Shown here: piece after piece, positions 5,886 to 22,287 of the stretch | How the letters are laid out: each line of letters opens with the position of its first letter | How positions within the stretch are numbered: the stretch's first letter is position 1 | Assembly: GCA_018822545.1 (NCBI GenBank) | Contig: JAHJKA010000049.1 | Location: 1 to 64,000, forward strand | DNA length: 64,000 nt | Source: Pseudomonadota bacterium | GTDB lineage: Bacteria; Desulfobacterota; Desulfobulbia; Desulfobulbales; SURF-16 | Reading direction: 5' to 3' | Position numbers and translations under genes: made by a program | Notes under the pieces: model-generated | Database searches by the model: none | What the model saw: the letters and a program-made list of their open reading frames with translations, nothing else | What the model was told of the DNA's origin: nothing

Positions 5886-8017
5886 CAATCCAACACAGAC
5901 GTTTCCACAATCTGCTCAATCCCCATCTGATCGGTAAGAATTATGCCAAGCATGTCCGCCCGTTTCCGGTTGACGATGAGCGGCCCGCGCTGAGGAGTCC
6001 GGGGTGGATAGGTTGCCGGACTCAGACCATTAACAAGGATATCAAAGCCGACCTGCACGGCCTCATAGCCTTGATTATAGCCGGAATCAAAGGCGACACA
6101 GAGACAACCTTTCTCCACAGCAAAGCCGGGCCCCACGGTTTCTGGAATAATGATATGGGTCAGATACCATTTCAACACTTCATCGGTGGAAACATTGTTG
6201 CCGGCCTTATCTTTAAGTGAAGCAAAATGTGCCAAAAAAAAGGCGTCAGTCTTGTGCTGGAGCTCCAGGGCCTTGGCCTGCCAGGATGCATAGTCGTCGG
6301 TAATCACCGTATCTACCAGAGTGAGGGGGAGTTCTTTTTTCTCTACCAGCCGCTCTATTGCCTTGGTGTAATTCCTCGCGGTATTTGAGCCATCAGAAAG
6401 GATAGCAAAGGACTTGATTCCCGGGGCAATGCTGCGCAGCAGATCAAAGCTCTCTAAGTAATACCCGCTCTGATAGATACCGGTGACATTATGCCCTGGC
6501 TTTTCTTTACTCTCAACCAAGCCATATTTTACCGGGGTATTATTAATTCCACAGAAGACAACAGGAACAGGAGAATCAAGAAATTTAGGCCCTAAAAATT
6601 TAGCAGCATTATCATCGTTCAGAAAAATAAGATCAGGTTGAAATTCTTTTGATTGTTCATAAAAAATAATACTCTTTGCTTCAATTTCGCCATCAGAACT
6701 TTGGCGCTTACTATCCATCCATAATTTCTTAATGATAAATCGTGAGGTGTCGACAAAATCATTTCTATCAAAATTTGCAACCTGCTGATCATTATCAAAA
6801 AAATTCAGCTCAAGCATGGCTGCATTAAACCCTTTTGTGATGCTCATAGTCCAGTCGAACTCCCGGTGGTAGCTATCAACAATAAGTATTTTCTTTTTTT
6901 CATGGGGAACAACTGCTGGGTCCTTGAGCACTGAAGCCTCTTCGATATACTCCTCGATACCCATTTCCTTACTGAGGGTGATGCCCAGCATCTTGGCTCG
7001 CTGCCTGTTTACCATAAGCGGGCCCCTTTTCGGGGCTCGGGGCGGGTAGGACGCAGGGCGAAAACCCTTGGCCAGGATATCATGGGCAATGCTCACAGCC
7101 TCATACCCCTGGTTATAGCCAGAATCATCTGCAGCACAAAGCCAACCCGCCTCTACCCGATAGCGGAACCCCACCGCCTCCGGGATGGTAATGTTTGCCA
7201 AATACCACTTTGCCGCCTCCTCGTTGCTGACCACCTTGCCGTTGTCATCCTTCAAGCCATTTGAAGAGGCGACAAAGAACGCATCCACCTTCTTCTGGAG
7301 TTCTAGGGCCTGTTGTTTCCATACCTCATAATCAGTCGTGGCAACGACAGCCATAAGCTTAAACGGCAGCTCCCCCTTGCGATCAAGATGCTCGATGGCC
7401 TTATTGTGAATCCTGCCGGTGGTCGTATCGTCTGAAAGAACGGCAAACGTCTTGACCTGAGGAACAATTTTTTTGAGCAGTTCAAGGCTCTCTTTATAGT
7501 ATGTTTTCTGATACACCCCGGTGACATTATGACCTGGCGTTTCAATACTGTCGACAAGGCCATATTTTACAGGGGTGTTATTAACCCCCCAGACAACGAT
7601 GGGAATTTTCGTATCGAGAAATTGATTTCCTATGTAATTGGCAGCATTATCGTCGCCGAGAAAAATAAGATCCGGATTAAATCGTTGAATAATCAATGAA
7701 AACTCTTTAGCGGTATTAGATTGTTCTTCCTTGCTCGGTTTCCTTTTGGTGTCCATCCACAAACGCGAGATAACTATCTTGGAGTTTTCAGCATAATCTT
7801 TGCTCTTGAATGCCTCTATTTCCTCCTGCTTCTCAAAATAACCAAAGGCCAACAGGGCATCACAAAGTCCCTGGCTCACATCCTGGGACCATTGATAGGC
7901 AGGATGATAGCTATCAACAATGATGATCCTGACTGGAGAGGTTACCTCAGCGCCCTGCCCTACGGAACAAAGCGCCCAGAGTGACAGGACAATCACGGCA
8001 AAGCTTATTTTTTTCAC
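5885..8017 (-). CDS. Periplasmic ABC-type binding protein with two tandem copies of the same domain
   Basis: A signal peptide (VKKISFAVIVLSLWALCSVGQG) begins at a GTG at 8017 that has AGGAG eight bases upstream; the frame stays open to 8089 without such support. The mature protein has two homologous halves of about 330 residues, starting near residues 30 and 372. Both repeat the same landmarks in order: IIVDSYH/LIVDSYH, DLIFLGDDNAA/DLIFLNDDNAA, NNTPVKYGLV, GHNVTGVYQ/GHNVTGIYQ, SGYNQGYEAV, YPPRAPKRGPL/YPPRTPQRGPL and the closing GI-E-Y/Q. The fold matches the ABC_sub_bind family (PF04392). No permease or ATPase is next to it. Instead it overlaps the downstream hybrid kinase by one base. I infer a sensory rather than transport role. 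Confidence 0.85.
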   Translation of the reverse strand: MKKISFAVIVLSLWALCSVGQGAEVTSPVRIIIVDSYHPAYQWSQDVSQGLCDALLAFGYFEKQEEIEAFKSKDYAENSKIVISRLWMDTKRKPSKEEQSNTAKEFSLIIQRFNPDLIFLGDDNAANYIGNQFLDTKIPIVVWGVNNTPVKYGLVDSIETPGHNVTGVYQKTYYKESLELLKKIVPQVKTFAVLSDDTTTGRIHNKAIEHLDRKGELPFKLMAVVATTDYEVWKQQALELQKKVDAFFVASSNGLKDDNGKVVSNEEAAKWYLANITIPEAVGFRYRVEAGWLCAADDSGYNQGYEAVSIAHDILAKGFRPASYPPRAPKRGPLMVNRQRAKMLGITLSKEMGIEEYIEEASVLKDPAVVPHEKKKILIVDSYHREFDWTMSITKGFNAAMLELNFFDNDQQVANFDRNDFVDTSRFIIKKLWMDSKRQSSDGEIEAKSIIFYEQSKEFQPDLIFLNDDNAAKFLGPKFLDSPVPVVFCGINNTPVKYGLVESKEKPGHNVTGIYQSGYYLESFDLLRSIAPGIKSFAILSDGSNTARNYTKAIERLVEKKELPLTLVDTVITDDYASWQAKALELQHKTDAFFLAHFASLKDKAGNNVSTDEVLKWYLTHIIIPETVGPGFAVEKGCLCVAFDSGYNQGYEAVQVGFDILVNGLSPATYPPRTPQRGPLIVNRKRADMLGIILTDQMGIEQIVETSVLD

Positions 8018-8345
8018 AAAGAACTCCTGGCTGAAAGCGTTAACCAATCGGGAATACACAATAATTTCAAGATAACCATGGAAAAACAAACCTCGCCGCC
8101 CACCTCAACCGTGGTGCATTCATGCATGGTATCAAAACCAAGACGAGGGATTCCAAAAAAAAATCTTTAAGAAGGAGATTCTTTTAATAAATAGACGAAG
8201 TACCCCATGTGCTCACGTAAAAACCAATACAAACATTAGAATTATCTGGATTAGGACCTATTTCATTATCCACCGCTCCAAGAGCGTGACGCAGGAAACC
8301 TTTCTGAGGAGATAAGTCCAGACAACATTCACCGTCTGAAAGATT
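8018..8345. other. Intergenic, 328 bases, no gene seen
   Basis: This lies between the Ycf46-type gene (ending at 8346) and the start of the tandem binding-protein gene, both read leftward. I see no open frame with a credible start, no strong terminator and no RNA gene. A weak hairpin (AATCT paired with AGATT) lies near 8167-8185. The promoter of the binding-protein/kinase operon should lie here. Confidence 0.5.
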
Positions 8346-9824
8346 TCAAGAGGCCGGACGAGCCCGTTTCTCTGCCCACTGGCGCAACTCTCCAATTTTC
8401 TCCTTATACGTCACCGAGAGGGGAACCGTTTCCTTAATTTCTGTCAGGATATCACCGTTGCTGACCTCCCTGCTCTCAGCAAAGGCGCGGTACAGCCCAG
8501 AGATCACCAACTGTTCGAGTTCAGCTCCGGTAAAACCAACCGATTCTACAGCAAATTTTTCAATATCAAAGGAGTCAGGATTCCTGTTTCTCTTTTTGAA
8601 ATGAATGGCAAGAATAGTCTTACGTTCTTTCAAGTCCGGCAGGTCAATAAAGAAGATTTCATCAAACCGACCCTTACGAAGGAGCTCAGGGGGAAGTTTT
8701 TCAATATTGTTAGCAGTGGCGATGACAAAAACAGGGGCTGTCTTTTCCTGCATCCAGGTCAGGAAGGTGCCGAAGACCCGGGCCGAGGTTCCTGAGTCGG
8801 AGTCGTTTTTCGAGCCCATGCCGGAAAAAGCCTTATCTATCTCGTCCATCCACAAAATATTCGGCGCCAGGGATTCAGCAATCTTGATGGCGTCGCGCAT
8901 GTTTTTTTCTGAAGAACCGATATAGGAGTCAAAAATCTTGCCCACATCAAGCTTGAGCAGAGGCAGGCTCCACAAAGAGGCCGTGGCCTTGGCGGCCAAC
9001 GACTTGCCGCAGCCCTGAACACCGAGAAGTAGAAGTCCTTTTGGCTCAGGCAACCCGAAATCTCGAGCCTTCTGACTGAACGCCAGCCCCCGTTGACTCA
9101 GCCATTTCTTGAGCATATCCAGGCCGCCGACATTTTTCATATCTTCTGAAAAATCGTAATAATCAAGCATGCCTGATTTGCGGATCACCTTCTTTTTTTC
9201 GGAGACCACAAAAGGCAGATCTTGGGCATCAAAGGACTTGTCCCTGACCACCAATTTGGCAAAAAGATTTTCCGCTTCCATTTCGGTGAGACCACGGGCG
9301 GCATTGACTACTTTTTCAATGAGTACCGCATCAAGATTGGCAGTAATTTTATTGATATCGGTCAGCGGCGTGATGATATCCATCAGGATGCGCTTGAGAT
9401 CTTCCGTATTCGGCAAAGGAATATCGATGGGGGTGATGGCATTTTCCAGACCAGGAGGTAAAACAAGGGCCGGCGCAATGATGCAGACGGTTTTGAAGCT
9501 TTTTTTCAGATTCGCAACCAGATCCCGTAGCTTACGGATGATCTGCGGCTGATCAAAAAAAGCATGGAAATCTTTAAGAACAAATATGCCAGGATCGTCG
9601 TGATCCATTATCGCCGCTAACGATTTAAACGGGTCCTTACCACGACTAAAGCGGTCGGTGTTGTAGAACCCTTCGGTCATGCTCCAGAAATAACAGGGTT
9701 TCTTGGCCTTTCGTGCCGCCTCTTCAAGGAGGCGTTCGGCCCGATTTTCCTCGGAGCTGATGATGTAGAGAATGGGATAGCGAGATTTGACATATAAAAC
9801 TACTTCCTCGACCAGATCTTCCAT
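8346..9824 (-). CDS. AAA-family ATPase, Ycf46-like
   Basis: This 492-residue protein has a degenerate N-terminal ATPase-like half ([17 protein letters not shown], then a region with GIFVLKDFH). The C-terminal AAA domain has Walker A GVQGCGKS near 268-275, Walker B ILWMDEID near 323-330, sensor ATANN, and an arginine-finger region LLRKGRFDE. The combination of an inactive N-half and an active C-terminal AAA module matches the Ycf46 family of chloroplasts and bacteria. In cyanobacteria that family has been linked to inorganic carbon use; its role here is unknown. The gene is divergent from the following operon and appears monocistronic. Confidence 0.85.
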
Positions 9825-10201: not shown

Positions 10202-11992
10202 ATGAGCAAGCAAAGCAGAATGAACATGTTGGTCTTTTCCAGTGCCGACCATAGCCTGGACCGTGACAGCAGTTTTTTGTTGTGGGCAGGTTCCATACTG
10301 TTGACGATCATGTGCCTGTGCATGATCAATCCGGCCCAAGCGGCACAATACATCTCCTCGCCGCCCCTGGATAAGGAAATCACCCTTCCCGTCGGTAACG
10401 TGGCCAAAACAGCGTATACCCGTGTTCCTTTTATTACCTGGGGCGGTGACGAAGCCACTATCCTTGCCAACGGCAATCAGGCCAAGACGGCTTCCGGGAG
10501 CATTTTCGACAAACTGGGCTTGAAACTTGAACTTGTCAGGGAGGATGATTTCAAGAAACAGGTCGAGTCCTACATGAAAGGCTCCACCCCCTATCTCCGC
10601 GGCACACTGGGCATGATCAACATGGCTTCCGAACTTTTGGCCAAGGATCCACGCACCAAACCCGTGATCATTTATCAACTTACGTGGTCCAGCGGCGGGG
10701 ACTGCCTGGTCGTTAAAAATGGCATCAAAACCGCCACCGCCCTGAAAGGTAAAACAGTGGCCATCCAGGCCTATGGACCACATGTCTACTATCTTTCAAA
10801 AATTCTAGCTGACGGTGGGCTTTCCCTCAAGGATATTAATATCAAATGGGTTCGCGACCTCACCGGCACGGAGAATACACCCATGGAAGCGTTCCACGAC
10901 AGCAAAGTAGATGCCGCCATGGTGATCATTCCGGACGGACTCGTGCTGACGTCAAACGGCACCGTGGGCAACGGCTCCGAGGGCTCTGTCAAGGGTGCCC
11001 AGATACTCCTTTCCACCAAAACTGCAAACCGAATCATCAGCGATGTCTATGCCGTGCGCTCCGACTTCCTTAAAACACATCGCTCCGAAGTGGAGAGTTT
11101 TGTCCACGGGCTGCTGCTGGGCGAAGAGAATCTTCGCGAGTTATATCAAAATAAGAATACCCGGCTGGCCGAATATTCCAAAATGATCAAGGCCTCGGCA
11201 ACCCTTCTTCTGGACAGCCCCGCAGCCACGGCTGACGCCGAAGCCCTCTATACCGACTGCGAATACACGGGCTATAAGGGTAATATCAAATTTTTTACCG
11301 ACACCAACTATCCAAGGAATATGGATAAACTGTCCTCCCAGATTCAAGATGCCTTTATCAACATCGGACTGCTGCGCACAAGGACGCCCCTCACCCATGC
11401 ATCCCTTGATTTCGCCGCCCTCAAATCCGGCCTTAAAAAGACAGCCATTGCCGAGGCCGCGAAATTCGACACGGCCCAAGTAGCGGCAGTCATTCAGCGC
11501 AAACAACAACAAGACACCTTGGCAGAGGGGGAGCTTTTCTCCTTTGAGGTCTATTTTCAACCAAACCAAAACCAGTTTTCTCCGGATATGTACATCGATG
11601 CCTTCAACAAGGTTATTGAACTCGCCACCACATACGGCGGTGCGATCATCACTGTAGAAGGCCATTCCGACCCTCTCGGTTATCTCAAATCAAAAAAACA
11701 GGGCTCGTCTGAGCTTGTCCTGCGCCACATGGGGCAATCGGCCAAAAACCTGAGCCTTTCCCGGGCCAATGCGGTCCGGACCAGCATCATCCAATACGCA
11801 AAGAGCAACGGCATTGTTATGGATGAAACCCAGTTCGCTGTGATTGGCCATGGTATTCTAAAGCCCAAAAACGGTTTGTGCTGTAGCGACCCTTGTCCTC
11901 CCAAAACCGAGCAGGAGTGGCGCAACAATATGCGGGTCGAGTTCCGCATCCTCCAGGTAGAGGCGGAAAGTTCCGTCTTTAAACCTTTATAA
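10202..11992 (+). CDS. Periplasmic binding protein fused to a C-terminal OmpA-like peptidoglycan-binding domain
   Basis: The 596-residue protein starts at an ATG after AAGGAA. It has a long basic N-region and a hydrophobic signal segment ending near AQAA (about residue 48). Residues of about 50-400 form a substrate-binding-protein-like domain of the NMT1/TauA/phosphonate-binding type, with LKGKTVAIQAYGPHVYYL and a late lobe beginning ISDVYAVRSDFL. Residues of about 440-590 are an OmpA domain. It keeps the Asp in EGHSDPLG and the Arg in LSLSRANAVRTS, the two residues that bind diaminopimelate in OmpA. Four cysteines cluster in the GLCCSDPC insert. The product is probably held to the cell wall in the periplasm. 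It heads an operon with vWA, XpaC-like, TelA and ABC importer genes. The ligand is unknown. Confidence 0.8.
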   Translation: MSKQSRMNMLVFSSADHSLDRDSSFLLWAGSILLTIMCLCMINPAQAAQYISSPPLDKEITLPVGNVAKTAYTRVPFITWGGDEATILANGNQAKTASGSIFDKLGLKLELVREDDFKKQVESYMKGSTPYLRGTLGMINMASELLAKDPRTKPVIIYQLTWSSGGDCLVVKNGIKTATALKGKTVAIQAYGPHVYYLSKILADGGLSLKDINIKWVRDLTGTENTPMEAFHDSKVDAAMVIIPDGLVLTSNGTVGNGSEGSVKGAQILLSTKTANRIISDVYAVRSDFLKTHRSEVESFVHGLLLGEENLRELYQNKNTRLAEYSKMIKASATLLLDSPAATADAEALYTDCEYTGYKGNIKFFTDTNYPRNMDKLSSQIQDAFINIGLLRTRTPLTHASLDFAALKSGLKKTAIAEAAKFDTAQVAAVIQRKQQQDTLAEGELFSFEVYFQPNQNQFSPDMYIDAFNKVIELATTYGGAIITVEGHSDPLGYLKSKKQGSSELVLRHMGQSAKNLSLSRANAVRTSIIQYAKSNGIVMDETQFAVIGHGILKPKNGLCCSDPCPPKTEQEWRNNMRVEFRILQVEAESSVFKPL

Positions 11993-12003
11993 GAAAGGTG
12001 GGC

Positions 12004-12783
12004 ATGATGCGAATAATCTCCAAATTAACCTTCCTGCTTGTCGGAACAGTATTATTTTGCCAGGGCTGCGACAATGCTCCGCCGCCCTCCGCACCGACCC
12101 CAAAAAAACCACCTGTCAGCAACAAAGCGACTGCGACGAATATCAACTACGCGTGGCCTCCGGCTACCGCGGATAGCCGAGACATCGTCATGGAGGCGGA
12201 CCTGACAACCAAAAATTATTATGTCGTTTTTGATAGCAGCGGATCCATGAGTGAACGAAAATGCTCCCTGGATCGTACCAAGATTGAGGTGGGGAAGGAT
12301 GCCTTGGCCAAATTCGCGGACCTCGTCCCAGCCGATGCCAACTTGGGCCTGCTCGTCTTTGAAAAGAGTTTTATCCAAGAACTAGTGCCCCTTGGCAAGG
12401 GAAACAGAAAAGAATTTGTCTCGGCGGTACGCAGACCTCAGCCGGCAGGGGAAACCCCCCTCCAAAACGCCCTCCAGACCGGGTACCAAAAACTCGAGGA
12501 ACAGGGAAGAAAGCAACTCGGTTACGGTGACTATTACCTGGTTGTGGTCACCGACGGAGAAGCCAGCCAAGGACAGGATCCGACACCAACCGTCAAATGG
12601 ATACTGGCCAATACACCGATACAAATACACACCATAGGCTTCTGTATCGGACCAGACCATTCTTTGAACATGAAAGGCCGCACGGTTTACAAGGCTGCCG
12701 ACAATCCTGACCAGTTGCAGCAAGGATTGGCAGACGTTCTGGCAGAAGCCGAGGTTTTCGATGTCTCGGATTTTAATTTCTGA
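12004..12783 (+). CDS. von Willebrand factor A domain lipoprotein
   Basis: A lipoprotein signal is visible (MMRIISKLTFLLVGTVLFC then QGC), with the lipobox cysteine near residue 22, followed by a proline-rich linker. The vWA domain begins around residue 70 with YYVVFDSSGSM, the metal-ion-dependent adhesion site (DxSxS). It continues with GETPLQNAL, which supplies the MIDAS threonine, and VVVTDGEA. Such domains bind protein partners or ligands through a divalent cation. The ATG at 12004 (or 12007) follows AAAGGTGG; the upstream GTG at 11998 overlaps that site and is less likely. It lies 11 bases after the first binding-protein/OmpA gene, so the products are likely made together in the envelope. 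Confidence 0.85.
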   Translation: MMRIISKLTFLLVGTVLFCQGCDNAPPPSAPTPKKPPVSNKATATNINYAWPPATADSRDIVMEADLTTKNYYVVFDSSGSMSERKCSLDRTKIEVGKDALAKFADLVPADANLGLLVFEKSFIQELVPLGKGNRKEFVSAVRRPQPAGETPLQNALQTGYQKLEEQGRKQLGYGDYYLVVVTDGEASQGQDPTPTVKWILANTPIQIHTIGFCIGPDHSLNMKGRTVYKAADNPDQLQQGLADVLAEAEVFDVSDFNF

Positions 12784-12801
12784 TCATCGGGAGAGGTACT
12801 G

Positions 12802-14370
12802 GTGAATAAGAAGACATTGGGTGCCATTCTGCTTCTGTTGCTGAGCACGGCCACCATCCTGCTCATCTGGTATCTACTGCCCCGCTTTCTTGACCGGGAG
12901 CAGAAAACCACCAGTGATGCCCAGAAGATAAAGGGCAAGATCCATATCGCCTATGATAACTGGATCGGCTATTTCCCGCTTTGTTCACCGGAAATGAAAA
13001 GCCAAATGCGGCGCTCAGGCTGGCTACTCGTCTGCGAGGACGACAATGCCGATTATCCTGGCCGCATGAAACGGCTGGAGGAAGGGGAAATTGATTTGGC
13101 AGTGGCCACTGTCGACTCGTTTATCCTGAACGCCAAGGCCGTTGATTACCCTGCCACCATTACAATGGTCATCGATGAATCCAAGGGCGGCGATGCCATC
13201 CTTGCCCGCCAAGAAAAGGTGGCAAGCCTTGATGCACTGAAGGGCAGAAATGATGTCAAAATTGCCTTTACCCCCGGCAGCCCCAGTCACTTTCTTGCCA
13301 AAGCTGCGGCAGAGCATTTCAATGTCCCGGAGATTCACCCCTACGGCCCAAACCGCATTGAAACGGAAGGCTCGGAGAAAGCGCGTGACAAGCTGCTTTC
13401 CGGCACAGTCGATGTGGCAATTCTCTGGGAACCGGATGTATCAAAAGCTTTAGAGCACAAGGGTATCAAGAAAATACTCGGCACCGAAGACACCGAGCGT
13501 CTCATTGTCGACATTCTTCTGGTCAGACGCCAATTCGCTAAAAAGCAGCCAGAAACTGTCAAACTCCTGATGAACACCTACTTCAGGGTGCTTAAAAAGT
13601 ATAGGGAAGACCCCAACCTCCTACGGGGGCATGTCAAAGACTCAATATCCTTGCCCGAGGATAAAATCGACTCTATGTTGCGTGGCGTGCACTGGGTATC
13701 CTTTACCGAAAACTGCGAGAAATGGTTCGGTATTGCCGCGCCTGGCAACTATGCCGATGAAGGCCTGATCGACACTATCGAATCCACGGTAAGGATACTT
13801 ACTAGCGCCGGTGATTTTGCCAGCAACCCCATTCCTGATGGCGATTCCTATCGGCTGACCAGTTCCACATTTCTTGAAGAACTTTTTACTGAGGGCATTT
13901 CAGGATTCACGAAACCAGCCGCAGGCCTGCAACAAACCGGGCCGATCAACTCCTTGGAGGCAAGCTTCCCCGCCTTGAATGAGTCTGCGTGGGATACTTT
14001 GCAGGAGGTCGGCACCCTGAAAATAGACCCCATCGTCTTTCAGCAAGGATCGACAGAACTGGGTATTCTGGACAAACAGGTAGTTGATAATGCGGTGGAA
14101 CGACTCAGGCATTACCCTAACTTCCGGGTCATCATCAAGGGCCATACCGCTACACGAGGCGACAGCATAGAAAACCTCCGGCTCTCCAAAGACCGGGCCG
14201 AAGCGGTTTCAAGATATCTTGAAATCACCTATAACATCAATCAAAACAGAGTGCGGGCGGTGGGCTATGGCGGCGAAAAACCGTTATCCCGCCAAGCTGG
14301 AGAATCCCAGCGGGCCTACGATTATCGACTGCCGCGGGTGGAACTTGTCCTGGCCCGTGAAGTGTATTAA
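12802..14370 (+). CDS. Membrane-anchored binding protein fused to OmpA-like domain (second copy type)
   Basis: The GTG start at 12802 follows GAGAGG by five bases. Residues 6-26 form a hydrophobic anchor without a clear cleavage site. Residues of about 44-330 are an NMT1/SsuA-like binding domain (KIHIAYDNWIGYFPLC, DLAVATVDSF, VAILWEPDVSKAL). Residues of about 400-520 are an OmpA domain with IVFQQGSTEL, GHTATRGDS, LRLSKDRAEAV and VRAVGYGGEKPL. The usual Asp of the GHTD motif is Ala here, while the Arg of LSxxRA is kept, so peptidoglycan binding may be altered. It has the same architecture as the operon's first gene but is only distantly similar, so it is not a recent duplicate. Confidence 0.8.
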   Translation: MNKKTLGAILLLLLSTATILLIWYLLPRFLDREQKTTSDAQKIKGKIHIAYDNWIGYFPLCSPEMKSQMRRSGWLLVCEDDNADYPGRMKRLEEGEIDLAVATVDSFILNAKAVDYPATITMVIDESKGGDAILARQEKVASLDALKGRNDVKIAFTPGSPSHFLAKAAAEHFNVPEIHPYGPNRIETEGSEKARDKLLSGTVDVAILWEPDVSKALEHKGIKKILGTEDTERLIVDILLVRRQFAKKQPETVKLLMNTYFRVLKKYREDPNLLRGHVKDSISLPEDKIDSMLRGVHWVSFTENCEKWFGIAAPGNYADEGLIDTIESTVRILTSAGDFASNPIPDGDSYRLTSSTFLEELFTEGISGFTKPAAGLQQTGPINSLEASFPALNESAWDTLQEVGTLKIDPIVFQQGSTELGILDKQVVDNAVERLRHYPNFRVIIKGHTATRGDSIENLRLSKDRAEAVSRYLEITYNINQNRVRAVGYGGEKPLSRQAGESQRAYDYRLPRVELVLAREVY

Positions 14371-14390
14371 GTGTCTGAAGGGTATACTTA

Positions 14391-15230
14391 ATGACTTCAA
14401 GCCCCATGCAGATGAAAGATTATTCTCAGAAAGCCATCAAGAAAGAGGTGGTCAAAAACGGCCTCACCCACTGGCTGACTATCTATCCTCCCTCCCTGGG
14501 TCTGCCTCTGGGACTGGCCGCTCTCCTTTTCGATCTGCCCATTTTATATCTGGGCATGATAGGGGCTCTATCCCTGGGCTTGGGGAGTGCTATTATCAAT
14601 ATTTTCTTCCGCAACGAGGTCGTAGCTCAGAAATATATTGAGCAGCTTAATATCAAACTTAAAAGCCTGGAAAAACTCACCCTAGCGACCTTGCTCCACG
14701 ACCTGAAGGACTGCCTGAAAATCCCTGGTGCGCAACAGTATGCCGGTCAGGCAGTTGAGCAGTATAATCGTATTCGAGAAAAGTACCGCAATGTGGAGAT
14801 ACTCCTTGGCAAAAAACTCAAAACCGGAGAATTAACCTATGCGAGGTTTCTCGGCTCAGCGGAACAAGTTTACTTGAGCGGCCTGGACAACCTGCGCCAA
14901 ATTGAGTCCTCCCTGCACAGTGCCGGAAGCATTGATCCGGAATATATCGGCAACCGCCTCAAGAGCCTTGCGCAGAAAGGGGAACTCTCTCCGGCCGACG
15001 TCAAAGAAAAAAACACCCTTACCAAAAGACTCGAGCTGCGCCGGCAACAGTTTGAGAAAGTGAACACCCTCCTGACCAACAACGAGGAGGCCATGACCAA
15101 ATTAGAAGAAACCACCGCAGCCATTGCAGAGATGCAGACGAGCGGAAAGTTCGCCCAGACCGATTATGAAACTGCGATATCACAGCTTCAGGAAATGGCG
15201 GAACGTGCCAGAACTTACAATAAATCATGA
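14391..15230 (+). CDS. XpaC-like membrane protein with long coiled coil
   Basis: The ATG follows AAGGG by nine bases. The N-terminal quarter carries two close hydrophobic segments (about 29-46 and 50-70). The remainder is charged and helical, rich in heptad-like stretches, with no cysteines in conserved spacing and no catalytic motif. Size, topology and position immediately before telA (four-base ATGA overlap with an alternative telA start) match the XpaC family (PF10112, 5-bromo-4-chloroindolyl phosphate hydrolysis protein), which also pairs with TelA in Bacillus. The assignment is by context and architecture, not clear motif identity. Its biochemical role is not known. Confidence 0.55.
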   Translation: MTSSPMQMKDYSQKAIKKEVVKNGLTHWLTIYPPSLGLPLGLAALLFDLPILYLGMIGALSLGLGSAIINIFFRNEVVAQKYIEQLNIKLKSLEKLTLATLLHDLKDCLKIPGAQQYAGQAVEQYNRIREKYRNVEILLGKKLKTGELTYARFLGSAEQVYLSGLDNLRQIESSLHSAGSIDPEYIGNRLKSLAQKGELSPADVKEKNTLTKRLELRRQQFEKVNTLLTNNEEAMTKLEETTAAIAEMQTSGKFAQTDYETAISQLQEMAERARTYNKS

Positions 15231-15238
15231 GGGAAATC

Positions 15239-16456
15239 ATGCAGACGAAGGCGCACACCAAGGAATCTACTGTACTGAAACCATCCGACACCGAGCAGGT
15301 GAAGGAAGAGCTCGGACTTGTCGACCCGATGACCATTGAGGTGCCGGAAGAGGTCGATCCGGCCCTTGAGAAGATGGCCGATGAGTTTGTCAAGGCCATC
15401 CTCTCCTTTAATCCTGAAGAGGCCTCCCAGGCCGAACTTCGGCAGCAAAACATTGCGACGGTGGAGAATATCGGCGCCAAGACCCAGAAAGACGCTGCCC
15501 TGCGCAGCGCCATGCTCAAGGAACCCATCAGAAAACTGGCGGCCAAGGGCGAGGACGGCGGCGAAGTGGCTAATGCTCTCCTGGATCTCAACATCCAAGT
15601 GGAGGCCCTTGATCCAGGCAAATTCGATTTCGAGGCGGGCTGGTTCCCAAGGCTCCTGGGATTTATCCCTGGGGTGGGTAAGCCCATGAAGCGTTACTTC
15701 CTGAGATACGAATCCGCCCAGACTGTACTCGACGCCATTTTCCGATCCCTGGAAGGCGGCGCAGACATGCTCAAACGCGACAATCTCACCTTGAGCGAAG
15801 ATCAAAAAAAGATGCGGGAGCTGACCGCCAAGCTTCAGAAGGCCATTGAGTTGGGTATGCTCCTAGACAGAAAGCTCAACACCGTCTTGGAACAGGAGGT
15901 TCCGTCAGATGATCCGCGCTTCCGGTTTATCCAAGAGGAGCTTCTTTTCCCCCTGCGACAGCGTGTGATTGACCTCCAGCAACAACTGGCCGTCAATCAG
16001 CAGGCCATTCTGGCCATTGAGATCGTAATCCGCAACAACAAGGAACTGGTGAGGGGCGTAAACCGCGCGGTCAACGTTACCTCAAATGCTCTCAATGTCG
16101 CGGTGACTGTGGCCCTTGCCCTGGCAAACCAGAAAATCGTCCTGGACCGCATAGAGGCGACCAACGCCACGACAAACAAACTCATCGGCGATACGGCCCG
16201 AAAATTACGGGAACAGGGGGTTGAGATCCATAAACAAGCCGCCACAAGCCAACTGGACATCAACACCCTGAAACAGGCATTCAACGATATCTCGCAGGCA
16301 CTTAATGACATTTCCAAATTCAGGAAGGAGGCCCTGCCTCAGATGGCCGGGACCATCCTCGAACTTGACAGTCTGACCAAGTCCACCGAGGAATCCATCA
16401 CCCGACTTGAAAAAGGGGATAAGGTGAGCCCCTCAATGTACCTGGAAATTGATTAA
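15239..16456 (+). CDS. telA: TelA family toxic-anion resistance protein
   Basis: The 405-residue helical protein contains TelA family landmarks. These include LDPGKFDFEAGWFPRLLGFIPGVGKPMKRYF near 130-160, LRQRVIDLQQQLAVNQQA, IEIVIRNNKELVRGVNRA, and TVALALANQKIVLDRI. The ATG at 15239 has GAGGG at good spacing; an ATG at 15227 overlapping the upstream stop is the alternative. TelA proteins were named for tellurite resistance, but their wider distribution in stress and envelope loci suggests another role. Here it sits between an XpaC-like protein and an ABC importer. Resistance to tellurite specifically is not implied by the sequence. Confidence 0.88.
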   Translation: MQTKAHTKESTVLKPSDTEQVKEELGLVDPMTIEVPEEVDPALEKMADEFVKAILSFNPEEASQAELRQQNIATVENIGAKTQKDAALRSAMLKEPIRKLAAKGEDGGEVANALLDLNIQVEALDPGKFDFEAGWFPRLLGFIPGVGKPMKRYFLRYESAQTVLDAIFRSLEGGADMLKRDNLTLSEDQKKMRELTAKLQKAIELGMLLDRKLNTVLEQEVPSDDPRFRFIQEELLFPLRQRVIDLQQQLAVNQQAILAIEIVIRNNKELVRGVNRAVNVTSNALNVAVTVALALANQKIVLDRIEATNATTNKLIGDTARKLREQGVEIHKQAATSQLDINTLKQAFNDISQALNDISKFRKEALPQMAGTILELDSLTKSTEESITRLEKGDKVSPSMYLEID

Positions 16457-16504
16457 TATCGATTCACTTAAGCCGGCACATACCCAAATGAGGAGGATTT
16501 TTTT

Positions 16505-17566
16505 ATGAAAAAACTACTGCTATCTGTCTGCATCTTTCTGGTGACCCTTGGCATGGGTTTCAGTGCCCAGGGCGGCGAAAAATACAAAATCGCCTGGTCT
16601 CACTATACCGGATGGGAGCCCTGGGAATACATATCCCAGTCAGGAATCATGGCCAAATGGGCAAAAAAATACGGCATTGATGATATCGAGATCGTGCTCG
16701 TCAACGATTACATCGAAAGCATCAACATGTACACTACCGGTCAATTCCATGGCTGCACCATGACCAATATGGATGCCCTGACCATCCCTGCGGTGGGTGG
16801 TATCGACTCGACGGTTCTTGTTGTCGGTGACTTTTCCAACGGCAATGACGCCATTGTCCTCTTGAACGGTTCCTCGGTCAAAGACCTCAAAGACCGGAAA
16901 CTGCGCATTGTCGAGCTTTCCGTGTCCCATTATCTGCTGACCAGAGCCCTTGACATGAACGGACTGACCGAAAGGGATCTCACCCTGGTAAACACCAGTG
17001 ATGCCGACATCGCCGGCCTTTTCATCTCCGAAACTGAAAGAGATCCAAAGGCAGCTGTCTGTACCTGGAACCCACCCCTTATGCAGGTCCGTAACGTTAA
17101 AAACACGACAATGGTCTTTGATTCCTCCAAGATTCCCGGCGAGATCATCGATACCCTCGTGGTCAGGACAGATGCGCCCGACGCCCTCAAAAAAGCCCTC
17201 ACCGGTGCCTGGTTCGAGGCCATGGTCAATATGTCGAGCCACAACAAGGTCGGCAAGCAGGCTCTGGACATCATGGCCAAGTCAGCGGGCGGCACTTTGG
17301 CCGAGTTCAAAGGCCAACTGAAAACAACCAATATGTTTTACAAGGCCGCCGAGGCCGCCAGCTTTGCCGAAAGCGACATACTCAAAAAAACCATGGAATA
17401 CGTCCGTTCCTTTAGTTTCGACCACGGACTTTACGGTGAAGGCGCTCCGAGCAAAGACCTGGTTGGCATCCAGTTTCCTGACGGCTCGGTTATCGGGGAC
17501 AAAAACAATGTCAAACTCCGTTTCGATTCGAAATTTATGCGCATGAAGGCCGCCGGTCAAATCTGA
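16505..17566 (+). CDS. ABC transporter periplasmic binding protein, urea-carboxylase-region type
   Basis: A signal peptide (MKKLLLSVCIFLVTLGMGFSAQGG) follows a strong AGGAGG site. The mature part starts KYKIAWSHYTGWEPW. It contains VNDYIESINMYTTGQFHGCTMTNMDAL and GGIDSTVLVVGDFSNGNDAI. These match what I know of the TIGR03427 binding proteins, usually encoded near urea/guanidine carboxylase. No carboxylase gene lies in this window, so the substrate could be different; a small nitrogen- or sulfonate-type compound is likely. The permease and ATPase follow directly. Confidence 0.82.
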   Translation: MKKLLLSVCIFLVTLGMGFSAQGGEKYKIAWSHYTGWEPWEYISQSGIMAKWAKKYGIDDIEIVLVNDYIESINMYTTGQFHGCTMTNMDALTIPAVGGIDSTVLVVGDFSNGNDAIVLLNGSSVKDLKDRKLRIVELSVSHYLLTRALDMNGLTERDLTLVNTSDADIAGLFISETERDPKAAVCTWNPPLMQVRNVKNTTMVFDSSKIPGEIIDTLVVRTDAPDALKKALTGAWFEAMVNMSSHNKVGKQALDIMAKSAGGTLAEFKGQLKTTNMFYKAAEAASFAESDILKKTMEYVRSFSFDHGLYGEGAPSKDLVGIQFPDGSVIGDKNNVKLRFDSKFMRMKAAGQI

Positions 17567-17712
17567 AAGACTCCTAAATAATGAAAAAACAGTCGCGGTA
17601 AACAGCCGGATAAAAAATCAATTTCCTCCGGCTGTCATCATACCTGCATTGTAACTGATACTTTTTTTAGGGGCCACTGCAGTTCATTCTGTTGTTGGAG
17701 GAAGGTGAAACA

Positions 17713-18540
17713 ATGAGAAAATTGCCAGTCTTTTTGGGGCTCCACGCCTCACCGTCTACCTCCCTGAAATGGGTGCTGGCGGTTATCCCTTTTATCCTGC
17801 TGATTATGGTCTACCTCGTTGCCTCTGACATCAGGCACCGATCCAACCCATCGGACAAGCTGCTGCCCACGGTCAGCAAAATGTACACGGCCATTAACAA
17901 GGCAGCCTTTGAGGAAAACGCGCGGACTGGCCAATATCAGCTTTGGAACGATACGGCTTCAAGCCTGAAACGCATAGGCATCGGGCTTGGCGCTGCCGCC
18001 ATCTGCGGATTGTTCTGCGGACTCAACCTCGGACTCTTACCGGGAATCAAGAATCTCTTTCTGCCCTTCACCACCTTTATCTCCATTATCCCACCCCTGG
18101 CTATCCTGCCAATCATGTTCATCCTGTTCGGGGTTGACGAACTGGCCAAAATTGTTCTCATTTTTATTGGCACCTTCCCCCTCATAACCAGAGACATCTA
18201 CCTTACAGTCAAAAAGATCCCCAGAGAACAGATCATCAAATCCCTGACCTTGGGCGCCTCTCCTTTTTCAGTGACATACCTGATCATTTTACCACAAATC
18301 ATGCCCAGACTCATCGATACTGTCCGCATCAGCATGGGGCCGGCCTGGCTTTTCTTGATAGCCTCTGAGGCCATCGCTGCAACTTCTGGTCTTGGCTACA
18401 GAATTTTTCTGGTCCGCCGCTATCTCGCCATGGACACTATTATCCCTTATGTGCTGTGGATTGTCTTTATCGGCATCACAGTGGACTGGGGCCTGCGAAA
18501 AATCGTGCAGACTAAGTACCGCTGGTACCTGGAATACTAA
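17713..18540 (+). CDS. ABC transporter permease, taurine/nitrate type
   Basis: The ATG at 17713 follows GGAGGAAGG; a TTG at 17692 is the in-frame alternative. The 275-residue protein has an N-terminal membrane segment and a periplasmic stretch, then about five further segments (BPD_transp_1 fold). The ATPase-contact loop is the region around KSLTLGASPFSVTYLIILPQ, matching the EAA motif (EAAxxxGAxxxxxxxxIxLP). The end, GLGYRIFLVRRYLAMD, resembles TauC/SsuC/NrtB permeases. It lies between its binding protein and ATPase and is expected to form a homodimeric channel with them. Confidence 0.88.
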   Translation: MRKLPVFLGLHASPSTSLKWVLAVIPFILLIMVYLVASDIRHRSNPSDKLLPTVSKMYTAINKAAFEENARTGQYQLWNDTASSLKRIGIGLGAAAICGLFCGLNLGLLPGIKNLFLPFTTFISIIPPLAILPIMFILFGVDELAKIVLIFIGTFPLITRDIYLTVKKIPREQIIKSLTLGASPFSVTYLIILPQIMPRLIDTVRISMGPAWLFLIASEAIAATSGLGYRIFLVRRYLAMDTIIPYVLWIVFIGITVDWGLRKIVQTKYRWYLEY

Positions 18541-18620
18541 CAACAGAGGCACACCCGGCCCAGGCAAAGGACAGGCCCTAAGGATCGAGCAACTCGGATT
18601 ATGAACAACTGGAGAATGGC

Positions 18621-19523
18621 ATGATAGAAAAATTGCGGGAAAAGAGCATACTCTTTCTGCACGATGTCTATAAACAATATGGTGACAAGGTTGTGCTTGA
18701 TGACATCGACCTGGCCGTGGCCCCCGGCGAGATCGTCACCGTCGTGGGCCCAAGTGGTTGCGGGAAAACAACCCTTCTCCGGATGATCCTGGGCCAGGAA
18801 TTTCCCACTTCAGGACAGATGCTCATCAACGGTAACCCTGTAGGACTCGCCGACTCGACACGTGGCATAGTCTACCAAAAATACTCTTTATTCCCCCACC
18901 TGAACGTGCTTGACAATGTCCTGACCGGCCCGAAGCTGAGTCTCCCTTTTTTTGAAAGAGGGCGCCACAAACAACAACTTACCGACGAGGCCATGTATTA
19001 TCTCCGCAAGGTTAACCTTGCGGAACATTCCAACAAATTTCCCCATGAGCTTTCGGGGGGGATGCGGCAACGCGTGGCCATTGCCCAATCACTGATCATG
19101 AAACCAAAAATCATCCTCATGGACGAACCCTTCGGCGCTCTTGATCCAGGTACCAGAGAGAACATGCAGGTCTTTCTGCTCGAACTATGGGAAGAGTTTA
19201 AGATGACCTTCTTTTTTGTGACCCATGATTTGGAGGAGGCTGTCTTTCTGGGCACCAGGATTCTTGTGCTGTCGCAATACTATACCGATGACCGGGGCAA
19301 TGGTGCGGGAATTCCGCGCGGTGCAAAAATTGTCTGTGATCATGCCCTACCCAAAGAAGCCCAATCAACCTCAGTGAAAGCCACCCAAAAGTTCGCTGAA
19401 CTCATTCAGCGAATCAGAAAAGCAGGGTTTGACCCGGAATACCAGCAGCATGCCAAGGATTTCGACCTCAGCCACAGCGATTCTTTCAGGACCCTGCGTG
19501 AAGACCAATACACCGGAAACTAA
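18621..19523 (+). CDS. ABC transporter ATP-binding protein, taurine/nitrate type
   Basis: Walker A is GPSGCGKTT, the Q-loop YQKYSLFPHL, the signature LSGGMRQRVAIAQ, Walker B IILMDEPFGALD and the H-loop VTHD, all in the usual order. The start ATG follows TGGAGAA. At 300 residues it is about 40 longer than TauB/SsuB. The extra C-terminal part (after ILVLSQYY) resembles the extensions seen in urea-carboxylase-linked importers. It is the last gene of the operon; the next gene is over 700 bases away. Confidence 0.9.
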   Translation: MIEKLREKSILFLHDVYKQYGDKVVLDDIDLAVAPGEIVTVVGPSGCGKTTLLRMILGQEFPTSGQMLINGNPVGLADSTRGIVYQKYSLFPHLNVLDNVLTGPKLSLPFFERGRHKQQLTDEAMYYLRKVNLAEHSNKFPHELSGGMRQRVAIAQSLIMKPKIILMDEPFGALDPGTRENMQVFLLELWEEFKMTFFFVTHDLEEAVFLGTRILVLSQYYTDDRGNGAGIPRGAKIVCDHALPKEAQSTSVKATQKFAELIQRIRKAGFDPEYQQHAKDFDLSHSDSFRTLREDQYTGN

Positions 19524-20232: not shown

Positions 20233-20760
20233 ATGGAAATTGGTAAAGCGATGAGATTTATCGCAACCTTGAGTGTTGTGGTGGCTATTGGACTCTTTGC
20301 CTATGTGGTGAAAGCGTCCAACATGATATCGTATCTTTCCAGCGACCCGAAAGTATGTATCAACTGCCACACCATGAACACCGTTTATGCAACCTGGCAG
20401 CACAGTTCACACAGGAATCGAGCTACCTGTGTGGAGTGCCATCTGCCGAGGGACTCTTTTGCGCACAAAATGCTCGCAAAATCACGGGATGGCTTCAAAC
20501 ATTCCGTGGCCATGACGTTTCGCACCTACGGTCTTAATATCAGGGCCACCGAAAACGCGGCCGACCGCATTCAGGCCAACTGCATCATGTGTCACCAAGA
20601 AATGGTATCGCAGATTGCGATCAACAGCGGTTTGTACCAGGCTGCCGGCAGCAACACCGGCATCGACAGAAGATGCTGGGACTGCCATAGAGAGGTGCCC
20701 CATGGCATCAACACCAACCTGACCGCTACTCCTGATAATATCGGAGTGAAGGAATTATAA
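20233..20760 (+). CDS. nrfH: Cytochrome c nitrite reductase small subunit (tetraheme quinol dehydrogenase)
   Basis: An N-terminal membrane segment (about residues 8-27) is followed by four CxxCH heme motifs: CINCH, CVECH, CIMCH and CWDCH. This is the NapC/NirT/NrfH pattern. The protein takes electrons from the menaquinol pool and passes them to NrfA on the periplasmic face. AGGAAGG precedes the ATG. nrfA follows after 24 bases. The upstream region contains candidate regulatory palindromes. Confidence 0.95.
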   Translation: MEIGKAMRFIATLSVVVAIGLFAYVVKASNMISYLSSDPKVCINCHTMNTVYATWQHSSHRNRATCVECHLPRDSFAHKMLAKSRDGFKHSVAMTFRTYGLNIRATENAADRIQANCIMCHQEMVSQIAINSGLYQAAGSNTGIDRRCWDCHREVPHGINTNLTATPDNIGVKEL

Positions 20761-20784
20761 TCCAACCAAAGAGGAGAATTAAAA

Positions 20785-22287
20785 ATGAAAAAATCTGTAC
20801 TGGTGACAATGGGATCAGTGGTTGTGATTGTTCCTTTGTTTCTGCTGGCCCTGTCCATCAACGAAAACAAGGCCGAGCAAAAGGTTATTAATGAAGTTCC
20901 AAAAATTAAACACATGGAAACCATCAGCGCCGAGTGGAGCAAGCATTTTCCCCGGCAGTACGATTCCTATGTGCAGACCAAGAAAAGCGACAAGATTACC
21001 GACATGCTTGAGAAAAACCCTGCTCTGGTGGTGTTGTGGGCAGGCTACGGCTTCTCCAAGGACTACAATGCCCCCCGCGGTCATTCCTATATGCTGGAGG
21101 ACAATATCAACACCCTACGCACCGGCGCTCCGGTGGACGGCAACACCGGCCCCATGCCAACGGCCTGCTGGACCTGTAAATCGCCGGATGTTCCGCGCCT
21201 GATGGAAAAAATCGGCGAACTGGACTATTTCACCGGCAAATGGGCACGATTCGGCAGCGAGATTGTCAATCCGGTTGGCTGTGCTGACTGCCATGACAAC
21301 GAGACCATGCGCCTCACCATTACCCGGCCCCACCTGAAACGCGCCCTGGATGCGGAAGGCAGCCTGAAAGCAGCTGACGCCACCCATCAGGATATGCGTA
21401 CCCTGGTCTGCGCCCAGTGCCATGCGGAATATTACTTCAAGCCCACCGACTGGACCGATAAAAACGGTGAAAAGAAAGTGGCCAAGGTCGTTACCTTCCC
21501 TTGGGCAAATGGTTTTGCGGTGGAAGACATGGAGAAATACTATGATGATATCAACTTTGCCGACTGGACCCACCAAGTCAGCAAGACTCCCATGCTGAAA
21601 GCGCAACATCCGGGTTATGAACTTTACAAGACCGGTGTCCACGCCTTAAATGGTGTGTCCTGCGCTGACTGTCATATGCCTTATGTGCGTGAGGGTGGTG
21701 TCAAGTATTCGTCTCATAATGTTGGCAGCCCCTTGGATAACATCGCCAACACCTGCCTTAATTGCCACAGTTCAGATGAAAAAACCCTGCGTGACACCAT
21801 TGCCAGAAAACTTGAGCGCAAGGATGAGCTGTCCAAAACGGCCATGGATGTCATCGGCAAGGCTCATCTTGAAGCAGGCAAGGCCTGGGAACTGGGCGCA
21901 ACAGAAGAGGAAATGAAGCCAGTTCTTCTTGACATCAGGCATGCCCAGTGGCGTTGGGATTACTCCATAGCCAGCCACGGTTCCTTCTTCCACGCCCCTG
22001 AAGAAACCCTGCGAATCTTGGGTTCCGCCATCAACAAAGGTCAGGATGCCCGGGTGAAGTTACGCACCGTTCTGGCCCGTTACAATGCCGCTGACTATGT
22101 GGCACCTGATTTTTCCACCAAGGAAAAAGCGCAGCAGGTCATTGGCCTGCCCTACCAGAAGCTGGTTGATGAGAAGATGAATTTCCTCAACACCTTGCGA
22201 GAGGAATGGATCAAAGAGGCTACAGCAAAGGGTCTTTATGACCCGAAAACAAGAGAGGGCTTGGAATTTAAAACCTCCTACAAGTAA
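20785..22287 (+). CDS. nrfA: Ammonia-forming cytochrome c nitrite reductase catalytic subunit
   Basis: The 500-residue protein has an uncleaved or signal-like N-terminal hydrophobic segment. It has the diagnostic lysine-ligated active-site heme motif CWTCK (about 128-132), then four CxxCH motifs (CADCH, CAQCH, CADCH, CLNCH). It reduces nitrite to ammonium with six electrons from NrfH. It also reduces NO and hydroxylamine, so it can serve detoxification or growth. GAGGAG precedes the ATG. The transcript ends at the strong hairpin at 22329. Confidence 0.97.
   Translation: MKKSVLVTMGSVVVIVPLFLLALSINENKAEQKVINEVPKIKHMETISAEWSKHFPRQYDSYVQTKKSDKITDMLEKNPALVVLWAGYGFSKDYNAPRGHSYMLEDNINTLRTGAPVDGNTGPMPTACWTCKSPDVPRLMEKIGELDYFTGKWARFGSEIVNPVGCADCHDNETMRLTITRPHLKRALDAEGSLKAADATHQDMRTLVCAQCHAEYYFKPTDWTDKNGEKKVAKVVTFPWANGFAVEDMEKYYDDINFADWTHQVSKTPMLKAQHPGYELYKTGVHALNGVSCADCHMPYVREGGVKYSSHNVGSPLDNIANTCLNCHSSDEKTLRDTIARKLERKDELSKTAMDVIGKAHLEAGKAWELGATEEEMKPVLLDIRHAQWRWDYSIASHGSFFHAPEETLRILGSAINKGQDARVKLRTVLARYNAADYVAPDFSTKEKAQQVIGLPYQKLVDEKMNFLNTLREEWIKEATAKGLYDPKTREGLEFKTSYK

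What the first reader, a model, noticed from the sequence alone, without database searches (positions are those of the whole stretch)
10202..19523. Eight-gene envelope operon: two binding-protein/OmpA fusions, vWA lipoprotein, XpaC-like and TelA proteins, and a full ABC importer
All genes are co-directional with gaps of 5-146 bases and good ribosome sites. Two proteins join a solute-binding domain to a peptidoglycan-binding OmpA domain, which would fix a ligand receptor to the cell wall. A vWA lipoprotein, XpaC/TelA pair and an importer follow. XpaC-TelA and taurine/nitrate-type importers are each known separately; I know of no described function for the combination. Inference: a wall-anchored solute capture or surveillance complex in which TelA and the coiled-coil protein act with the vWA protein.
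Basis: partly seen in the sequence, partly recalled or inferred. Interest (0 to 1): 0.75.

Follow-up and report, generated by a model that had tools for sequence, protein, structure and literature searches.

The report
Wall-anchored receptor–TelA–ABC transporter gene cluster
Eight genes that travel together across distant bacteria and plasmids appear to build one machine spanning the cell envelope, in which small-molecule receptors (at least one tied to the cell wall) serve a membrane pump with an inner scaffold, and a cut-down version is carried by many huge phages; I found no description of it.

Summary
The eight genes are real and co-directional. They form a mobile, conserved unit, not a chance neighbourhood. 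All eight, in the same order, occur in nine other loci (Desulfobacterota-type, Gammaproteobacteria, Sungbacteria); rearranged copies lie in a 'Bordetella' MAG and on Vibrio plasmids. The cluster is absent from 57 relatives of the host, so it was probably acquired.

Corrections:
- Gene 4 is not recognisably XpaC.
- Only the first OmpA domain keeps both canonical peptidoglycan-binding residues.
- The free binding protein matches the urea/guanidine-carboxylase-linked family TIGR03427, not taurine/nitrate, yet none of 11 cluster genomes has that carboxylase above its cut-off.
- TelA, the free binding protein, or the ATPase/permease can be missing in single loci.

Unexpectedly, a related five-gene module (two coiled-coil proteins, wall-type binding protein, permease, ATPase) is conserved in many huge phages, including phage G, Lak phages and the 735-kb phage. 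One 595-kb phage has a near-complete version without TelA.

Best explanation: a trans-envelope ABC system. Wall-tethered receptors serve a dedicated transporter, and a membrane-hairpin protein and TelA form a cytoplasmic-face scaffold. Ligand and physiology are untested. I found no description in the searched literature.

The parts
10202..11992 (+). Gene 1, SBP1-OmpA: secreted TauA/SsuA-like solute-binding domain (about residues 70-400) joined to a C-terminal OmpA-type peptidoglycan-binding domain (about 440-585)
   Evidence: PF09084 E 3e-6 and PF00691 E 4e-4; PDB profile matches TauA 6ssy and Omp38 3td3; Asp490 and Arg521 invariant in 14 sequences
11998..12783 (+). Gene 2, vWA domain protein, membrane-anchored (lipobox Cys in the Desulfobacterota-type members, uncleaved TM-like segment in several gammaproteobacterial members)
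   Evidence: PF00092 E 1e-10; MIDAS residues DxSGS...T...D invariant in 14 members
12802..14370 (+). Gene 3, SBP2-OmpA: N-terminal membrane anchor, SsuA-like binding domain, C-terminal OmpA/MotB-like domain lacking the canonical Asp
   Evidence: SsuA family E 7e-16, OmpA PF00691 E 2.5e-16, closest solved OmpA domains 5wtp/3td3; residue 450 is A/G/S in 15 of 15 members
14391..15230 (+).
   Evidence: No Pfam/NCBIfam family; related to the phage LR756511 239-aa protein (hhalign 95.7%) and to a TelA-linked 290-aa protein in L014 (90.4%)
15227..16456 (+). Gene 5, TelA (toxic anion resistance family), cytoplasmic helical protein
   Evidence: PF05816 E 3.8e-70; the only TelA in the genome; predicted long helical hairpin 152-223/230-315, no significant solved relative
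16505..17566 (+). Gene 6, SBP3: free periplasmic binding protein of family TIGR03427
   Evidence: 473.6 bits vs cut-off 333.9; AlphaFold model pLDDT 89, closest solved fold TauA/SsuA
17692..18540 (+). Gene 7, ABC permease (probably starts at the ATG at 17713)
   Evidence: PF00528 E 2.4e-17, TauC-like; start site
18621..19523 (+). Gene 8, ABC ATPase with C-terminal extension
   Evidence: PF00005 E 1.6e-32
8346..9824 (-). Optional partner: AAA+ ATPase, divergent from the cluster
   Evidence: PF00004 E 9e-32; 70% identical gene directly upstream of the cluster in L019; no match at E<=1e-100 in 18 relatives of the host that were searched

Best explanation
The cluster encodes one trans-envelope ABC system. 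Shown by sequence: three related TauA/SsuA-type binding proteins (one free, one secreted with a canonical peptidoglycan-binding OmpA domain, one anchored in the inner membrane with an OmpA/MotB-like domain), a membrane-anchored vWA protein with intact metal site, a TauC-like permease and ATPase, a membrane-hairpin coiled-coil protein, and cytoplasmic TelA; these are inherited and moved as a unit. Inferred: the OmpA domain holds SBP1 on the wall next to the permease; SBP2 bridges membrane and periplasm as MotB does; the vWA protein organises the receptors through its metal site; gene 4 and TelA form a scaffold on the cytoplasmic face. The transporter takes up a small solute, probably urea/guanidine-like for SBP3, with capture and perhaps activity coupled to the position of wall and membrane. 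Mechanical or stress coupling is the least certain step.
For: Same eight genes in the same order in nine other loci of Desulfobacterota-type, gammaproteobacterial and Sungbacteria genomes, plus an ATPase-first version on Vibrio plasmids. Absent from 57 order relatives, three of them congeners, so probably acquired and kept as a block. Pairwise identities correlate across most of the proteins, vWA least. The permease and ATPase stay when SBP3 is lost (L086), and in most phages SBP-OmpA accompanies permease and ATPase with no free binding protein seen at the locus, so OmpA-fused receptors plausibly serve the permease themselves. Canonical peptidoglycan residues in SBP1. Vibrio and 595-kb phage copies keep receptor + vWA + gene-4-like + permease + ATPase. 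SBP3 shares 68 conserved positions with urea-carboxylase-linked SBPs, with four fixed differences. TelA and xpaC-yaaN act in envelope stress in Firmicutes (PMC12791056, PMC3498285).
Against: TelA is dispensable in one genome. In L035 the permease and ATPase do not follow the other genes, in L029 no good ATPase is adjacent, and L024 has SBP2 alone. OmpA-2 lacks the canonical Asp. TelA had no significant fold match and a weak model. No expression or interaction data. No urea/guanidine carboxylase over cut-off in 11 cluster genomes, so the ligand may differ.
Confidence: 0.55

Rival explanations
1. Ordinary nutrient importer: a urea/guanidine-type ABC transporter acquired with envelope genes; TelA, vWA and OmpA parts are bystanders or mild stress helpers with no joint machine.
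For: Free SBP, permease and ATPase resemble the importers beside urea carboxylase (L073, L088-L090). SBP3 invariants match in 68 positions. TelA, SBP3 or the transporter is missing in single loci.
Against: Eight genes retained together across phyla; none of 11 cluster genomes has the carboxylase over cut-off; OmpA-fused receptors go with permease and ATPase in phages as well.
Confidence: 0.2
2. Envelope-stress or exclusion system: receptors detect an envelope-active compound, or block incoming phage/DNA, and TelA/gene 4 reinforce the membrane; carried by plasmids and phages for competition.
For: Plasmid and phage carriage; TelA placed among sub-membrane components of Ter systems in jumbo phages (PMC7824862) and linked to nisin tolerance in Listeria (PMC12791056); flotillin/NfeD/YqiJ genes beside two copies; OmpA-2 resembles ZorB/MotB.
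Against: No nuclease or toxin effector; PADLOC finds no defence system, only generic ATPase and MotB matches; no TerB/C/D hit among the 18 window proteins scanned; most phage versions lack TelA and vWA.
Confidence: 0.2
3. Membrane-remodelling complex of the FtsZl1/vWA/OmpA type proposed by Makarova and Koonin.
For: Same pairing of vWA and OmpA-domain proteins (PMC2875224).
Against: No FtsZ/tubulin-family protein or P-loop GTPase among the 18 window proteins scanned; the conserved core here is an ABC transporter.
Confidence: 0.05

Closest known systems
Urea/guanidine-carboxylase-linked ABC transporter (TIGR03427 SBP with permease and ATPase)
   Same: Same SBP family over cut-off, 53% identity to the L073 protein, nearly identical conserved motifs, same SBP-permease-ATPase order
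   Different: No carboxylase, allophanate hydrolase or UAAP genes; joined to two SBP-OmpA proteins, vWA, gene 4 and TelA; four fixed residue differences, including E38 for M
xpaC-yaaN (XpaC-TelA) pair of Firmicutes
   Same: A TelA gene preceded by a small membrane coiled-coil protein gene
   Different: Gene 4 shows no detectable PF10112 relationship; no ABC transporter or OmpA receptors are described for the Firmicutes pair
TelA operons with an SBP_bac_11-vWA fusion and, in L011, PF10112 (L011, L013, L014; plasmid L038 with vWA)
   Same: TelA with a solute-binding domain and a vWA domain: the same parts list in fused form
   Different: No OmpA domains or permease/ATPase seen in those operons
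Ter stress systems (TelA, TerF vWA, TerC/TerD)
   Same: TelA together with a vWA protein
   Different: No TerB/C/D found among the scanned window proteins; receptors and transporter added
Huge-phage SBP-OmpA/ABC module (phage G gp243-gp250, Lak, LR756501; PHROG 25518)
   Same: OmpA-fused TauA-like receptor, permease, ATPase, membrane coiled-coil protein, second coiled-coil protein
   Different: No vWA or TelA in most; coiled-coil proteins not detectably homologous; I found no description of it as a module in the searched literature

Membership tests
TauABC/SsuABC-type ABC importer | TauA/SsuA-fold binding protein, BPD_transp_1 permease, ABC ATPase together | tested here: met
TIGR03427 urea/guanidine-carboxylase-linked transporter | SBP above the family cut-off | tested here: met
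   473.6 vs 333.9 bits
TIGR03427 urea/guanidine-carboxylase-linked transporter | Urea/guanidine carboxylase (TIGR02712 over cut-off) in the genome | tested here: not met
   0 of 11 cluster genomes; the carboxylase-linked genomes G016 and G147 scored over cut-off; G000 is about 85% complete
XpaC-TelA pair | TelA (PF05816) | tested here: met
XpaC-TelA pair | XpaC (PF10112) | tested here: not met
   0 of 14 members by Pfam; hhalign 0.3-0.4%
Peptidoglycan-binding OmpA-like domain | Canonical Asp and Arg of the diaminopimelate site (positions from prior knowledge of Omp38) | tested here: inconclusive
   Met in SBP1 (14/14), Asp lost in SBP2 (15/15)
Ter stress system | TerB/TerC/TerD or PRTase/HAD genes alongside | tested here: not met
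   No such Pfam hits among 18 window proteins in and around the cluster
FtsZl1-vWA-OmpA membrane-remodelling system | FtsZ-like protein in the operon | tested here: not met
   No tubulin/FtsZ hit among 18 window proteins
Phage shock / ESCRT-III (PspA) system | PspA/IM30 protein or TelA with that fold | tested here: inconclusive
   No PspA in G000; TelA fold search not significant; phage G gp247 weak PspA_IM30 match, E 0.36; hhalign negative
Known anti-phage defence system | PADLOC system match | tested here: not met

The most novel reading that the evidence does not exclude
A previously undescribed class of trans-envelope ABC machine in which wall-tethered binding proteins gate or feed a transporter held by a cytoplasmic coiled-coil scaffold, so that transport responds to wall-membrane geometry or turgor; huge phages carry a minimal version to control solute supply or envelope state of the host during long infections.
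Probability: 0.25. Interest if true: 0.9.

Novelty: new variant of a known kind. Interest (0 to 1): 0.72.

Why it matters
Binding proteins of ABC importers are normally free, lipid-anchored or fused to the transporter; here they carry wall-binding domains and travel with TelA, a widespread protein whose mechanism is unknown. The cluster offers TelA a concrete set of partners. The related module in phage G, Lak phages, the 735-kb phage and more than ten IMG/VR contigs is a conserved but unexplained feature of huge phages, and phage G gives a culturable test case.

Tried and rejected
PspA/ESCRT-III link: the phage protein in the TelA slot looked PspA-like by eye, but Pfam and hhalign gave nothing significant, and the TelA model matched no solved fold significantly; not claimed. 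Guanidine riboswitch: none in the window and no guanidine-I in five genomes searched (other guanidine riboswitch classes not searched genome-wide). PDB profile searches for TelA and gene 4 found no credible relative. First viral-contig scans with bacterial SBP2 or single phage queries failed; only the phage alignment worked. TelA search of phages: no match. Promoter/terminator scan uninformative: promoters 14 vs 8.5 expected, terminators 21 vs 12.6. GC content unremarkable. Literature searches found no description of the combination.
Full report
OBSERVATION. Eight + strand ORFs lie at 10202-19523. Their domains are NMT1-like SBP + OmpA, vWA, SsuA-like SBP + OmpA, no known family, TelA, SBP, permease and ATPase. 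Gaps are 5, 18, 20, -4, 48, 125 and 80 bases; the 125 becomes 146 if the permease starts at the ATG with the better ribosome site. An AAA+ gene lies divergently at 8346-9824, and cytochrome genes (nrfHA-like) start at 20233.

CORRECTIONS. Gene 4 is not recognisably XpaC: no Pfam or NCBIfam hit, none of 14 members hits PF10112, and hhalign to two PF10112 proteins found nothing. That last test used only two proteins, so a very distant relation is not excluded. The free SBP is TIGR03427, above its cut-off. OmpA-1 keeps Asp490 and Arg521 in 14 of 14 members; OmpA-2 has A, G or S in place of the Asp in 15 of 15 but keeps the Arg. The role of these residues in diaminopimelate binding is my prior knowledge of Omp38. 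The vWA metal site is invariant.

CONSERVATION. A scan of 84,980 species genomes with an SBP2-OmpA alignment found 17 loci. Nine have all eight genes in the window's order (L019, L021, L023, L025, L026, L027, L028, L031, L034), some with a gene inserted; L030 has TelA moved to the end; L020, L022, L032 and L033 end at contig ends but agree as far as they go. Exceptions: L035 has no permease or ATPase after SBP3, L029 has no good adjacent ATPase, and L024 has SBP2 alone. G312 (L074) has everything except TelA, and its genome has no TelA; L086 lacks SBP3. Vibrio plasmids carry the set with the ATPase first, at about 37-38% identity for SBP2. L023 and L016 are the same contig, so G243 is counted once. 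The query was SBP2, so the survey is blind to clusters that lack it.

RARITY AND MOBILITY. TelA occurs over cut-off in 8 of 297 genomes of the phylum. SBP2-OmpA occurs in 4 of 369 gammaproteobacterial genomes, two of which were already known loci, and in none of 57 order relatives of the host, including three congeners. The AAA+ gene has no close match in the 18 relatives searched but sits next to the cluster in L019 at 70% identity. This fits acquisition as a block; gene loss in all relatives is the less likely alternative.

TRANSPORT PART. SBP3 folds as TauA/SsuA (pLDDT 89). Its nearest functional relatives lie beside urea carboxylase, allophanate hydrolase and UAAP genes. A recent review says that most enzymes annotated as urea carboxylase prefer guanidine (PMC12186494). 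Across 16 cluster and 4 carboxylase-linked SBPs, 68 positions are conserved in both sets and four are fixed differently (E38/M, L65/Q, V97/A, T264/D). No cluster genome tested has the carboxylase over cut-off (0 of 11). So the ligand is probably of similar size and chemistry, but the downstream pathway is different. The public label 'putative urea ABC transporter substrate-binding protein' on these copies is likely an over-transfer.

PHAGES. tblastn in 50,697 phage records found SBP-OmpA proteins covering at least 80% of the query in the 735-kb phage records, 15 Lak phages (540-552 kb), phage G (498 kb) and the 595-kb phage LR756511, plus one 38-kb faecal contig. In LR756511 the order is SBP1-OmpA, vWA, SBP2-OmpA, gene-4-like, a 277-aa coiled-coil protein in TelA's place, SBP3, permease, ATPase. 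Phage G has gp243 permease, gp245 ATPase, gp247 membrane coiled-coil, and gp249 and gp250 SBP-OmpA. An IMG/VR scan added 15 loci on contigs of 54-513 kb, one of them phage G itself and two that look identical; nearly all show coiled-coil protein, membrane coiled-coil protein, SBP-OmpA, permease, ATPase in order. Contig lengths are lower bounds and I did not count huge phages without the module, so a link to genome size is a lead, not a result. The jumbo-phage review mentions TelA and Ter but no OmpA or SBP; the huge-phage and Lak papers searched do not describe it either.

MECHANISM. Shown: parts, co-inheritance, residue signatures. Inferred: OmpA-fused receptors serve the permease, because they stay with permease and ATPase where SBP3 is missing (L086) and where no free binding protein is seen (most phages); wall tethering through OmpA-1; scaffold role for gene 4 and TelA. 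TelA's link to envelope stress comes from Firmicutes (PMC12791056, PMC3498285). Whether the system imports a nutrient, senses the envelope or excludes attackers is open; I put most weight on transport coupled to wall position.

NOVELTY. Components and some fusions are known to annotation pipelines; I found no description of the cluster or of the phage module in the open-access library searched, which does not hold most subscription papers. Filed as a new variant of an ABC importer.

Noticed in passing
L036, L037, L040, L041, L042, L091-L105: Conserved huge-phage module: coiled-coil protein, membrane coiled-coil protein, SBP-OmpA, ABC permease, ABC ATPase (phage G order differs, with two SBP-OmpA genes).
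   Followed up: partly
window 8346-9824: Divergent AAA+ ATPase, 70% identical to a gene directly upstream of the cluster in L019; no close match in 18 relatives of the host. PADLOC gives generic IetA matches only.
   Followed up: partly
L011, L013, L014, L038: Other TelA operons carry a solute-binding/vWA fusion or vWA protein, and in L011 a PF10112 protein: a fused form of the same parts list.
   Followed up: partly
L019 16662-17681, L021 10480-11520, L031 4944-6008: A protein of about 340-354 aa with no clear Pfam family sits next to the cluster in three loci; it is not in the window.
   Followed up: no
L023 2568-4726, L026 4661-7132: Flotillin (Band_7) with NfeD- or YqiJ-type partner beside the cluster in two unrelated genomes.
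   Followed up: no
L031 8883-9773; L034 11763-13385: Genes inserted inside the cluster: a PPK2-type polyphosphate kinase in L031 and an AAA ATPase in L034.
   Followed up: no
L025 15626-18398: A second gene-4-like protein and an SBP/vWA fusion lie just downstream of the complete cluster in this Sungbacteria genome.
   Followed up: no
window 3246-8089: Hybrid histidine kinase (dCache, PAS) next to an ABC_sub_bind protein, upstream on the minus strand; possible separate sensing pair.
   Followed up: no
window 20233-22287: Cytochrome c nitrite reductase pair (NrfH- and NrfA-like) directly downstream; looks like a separate unit.
   Followed up: no
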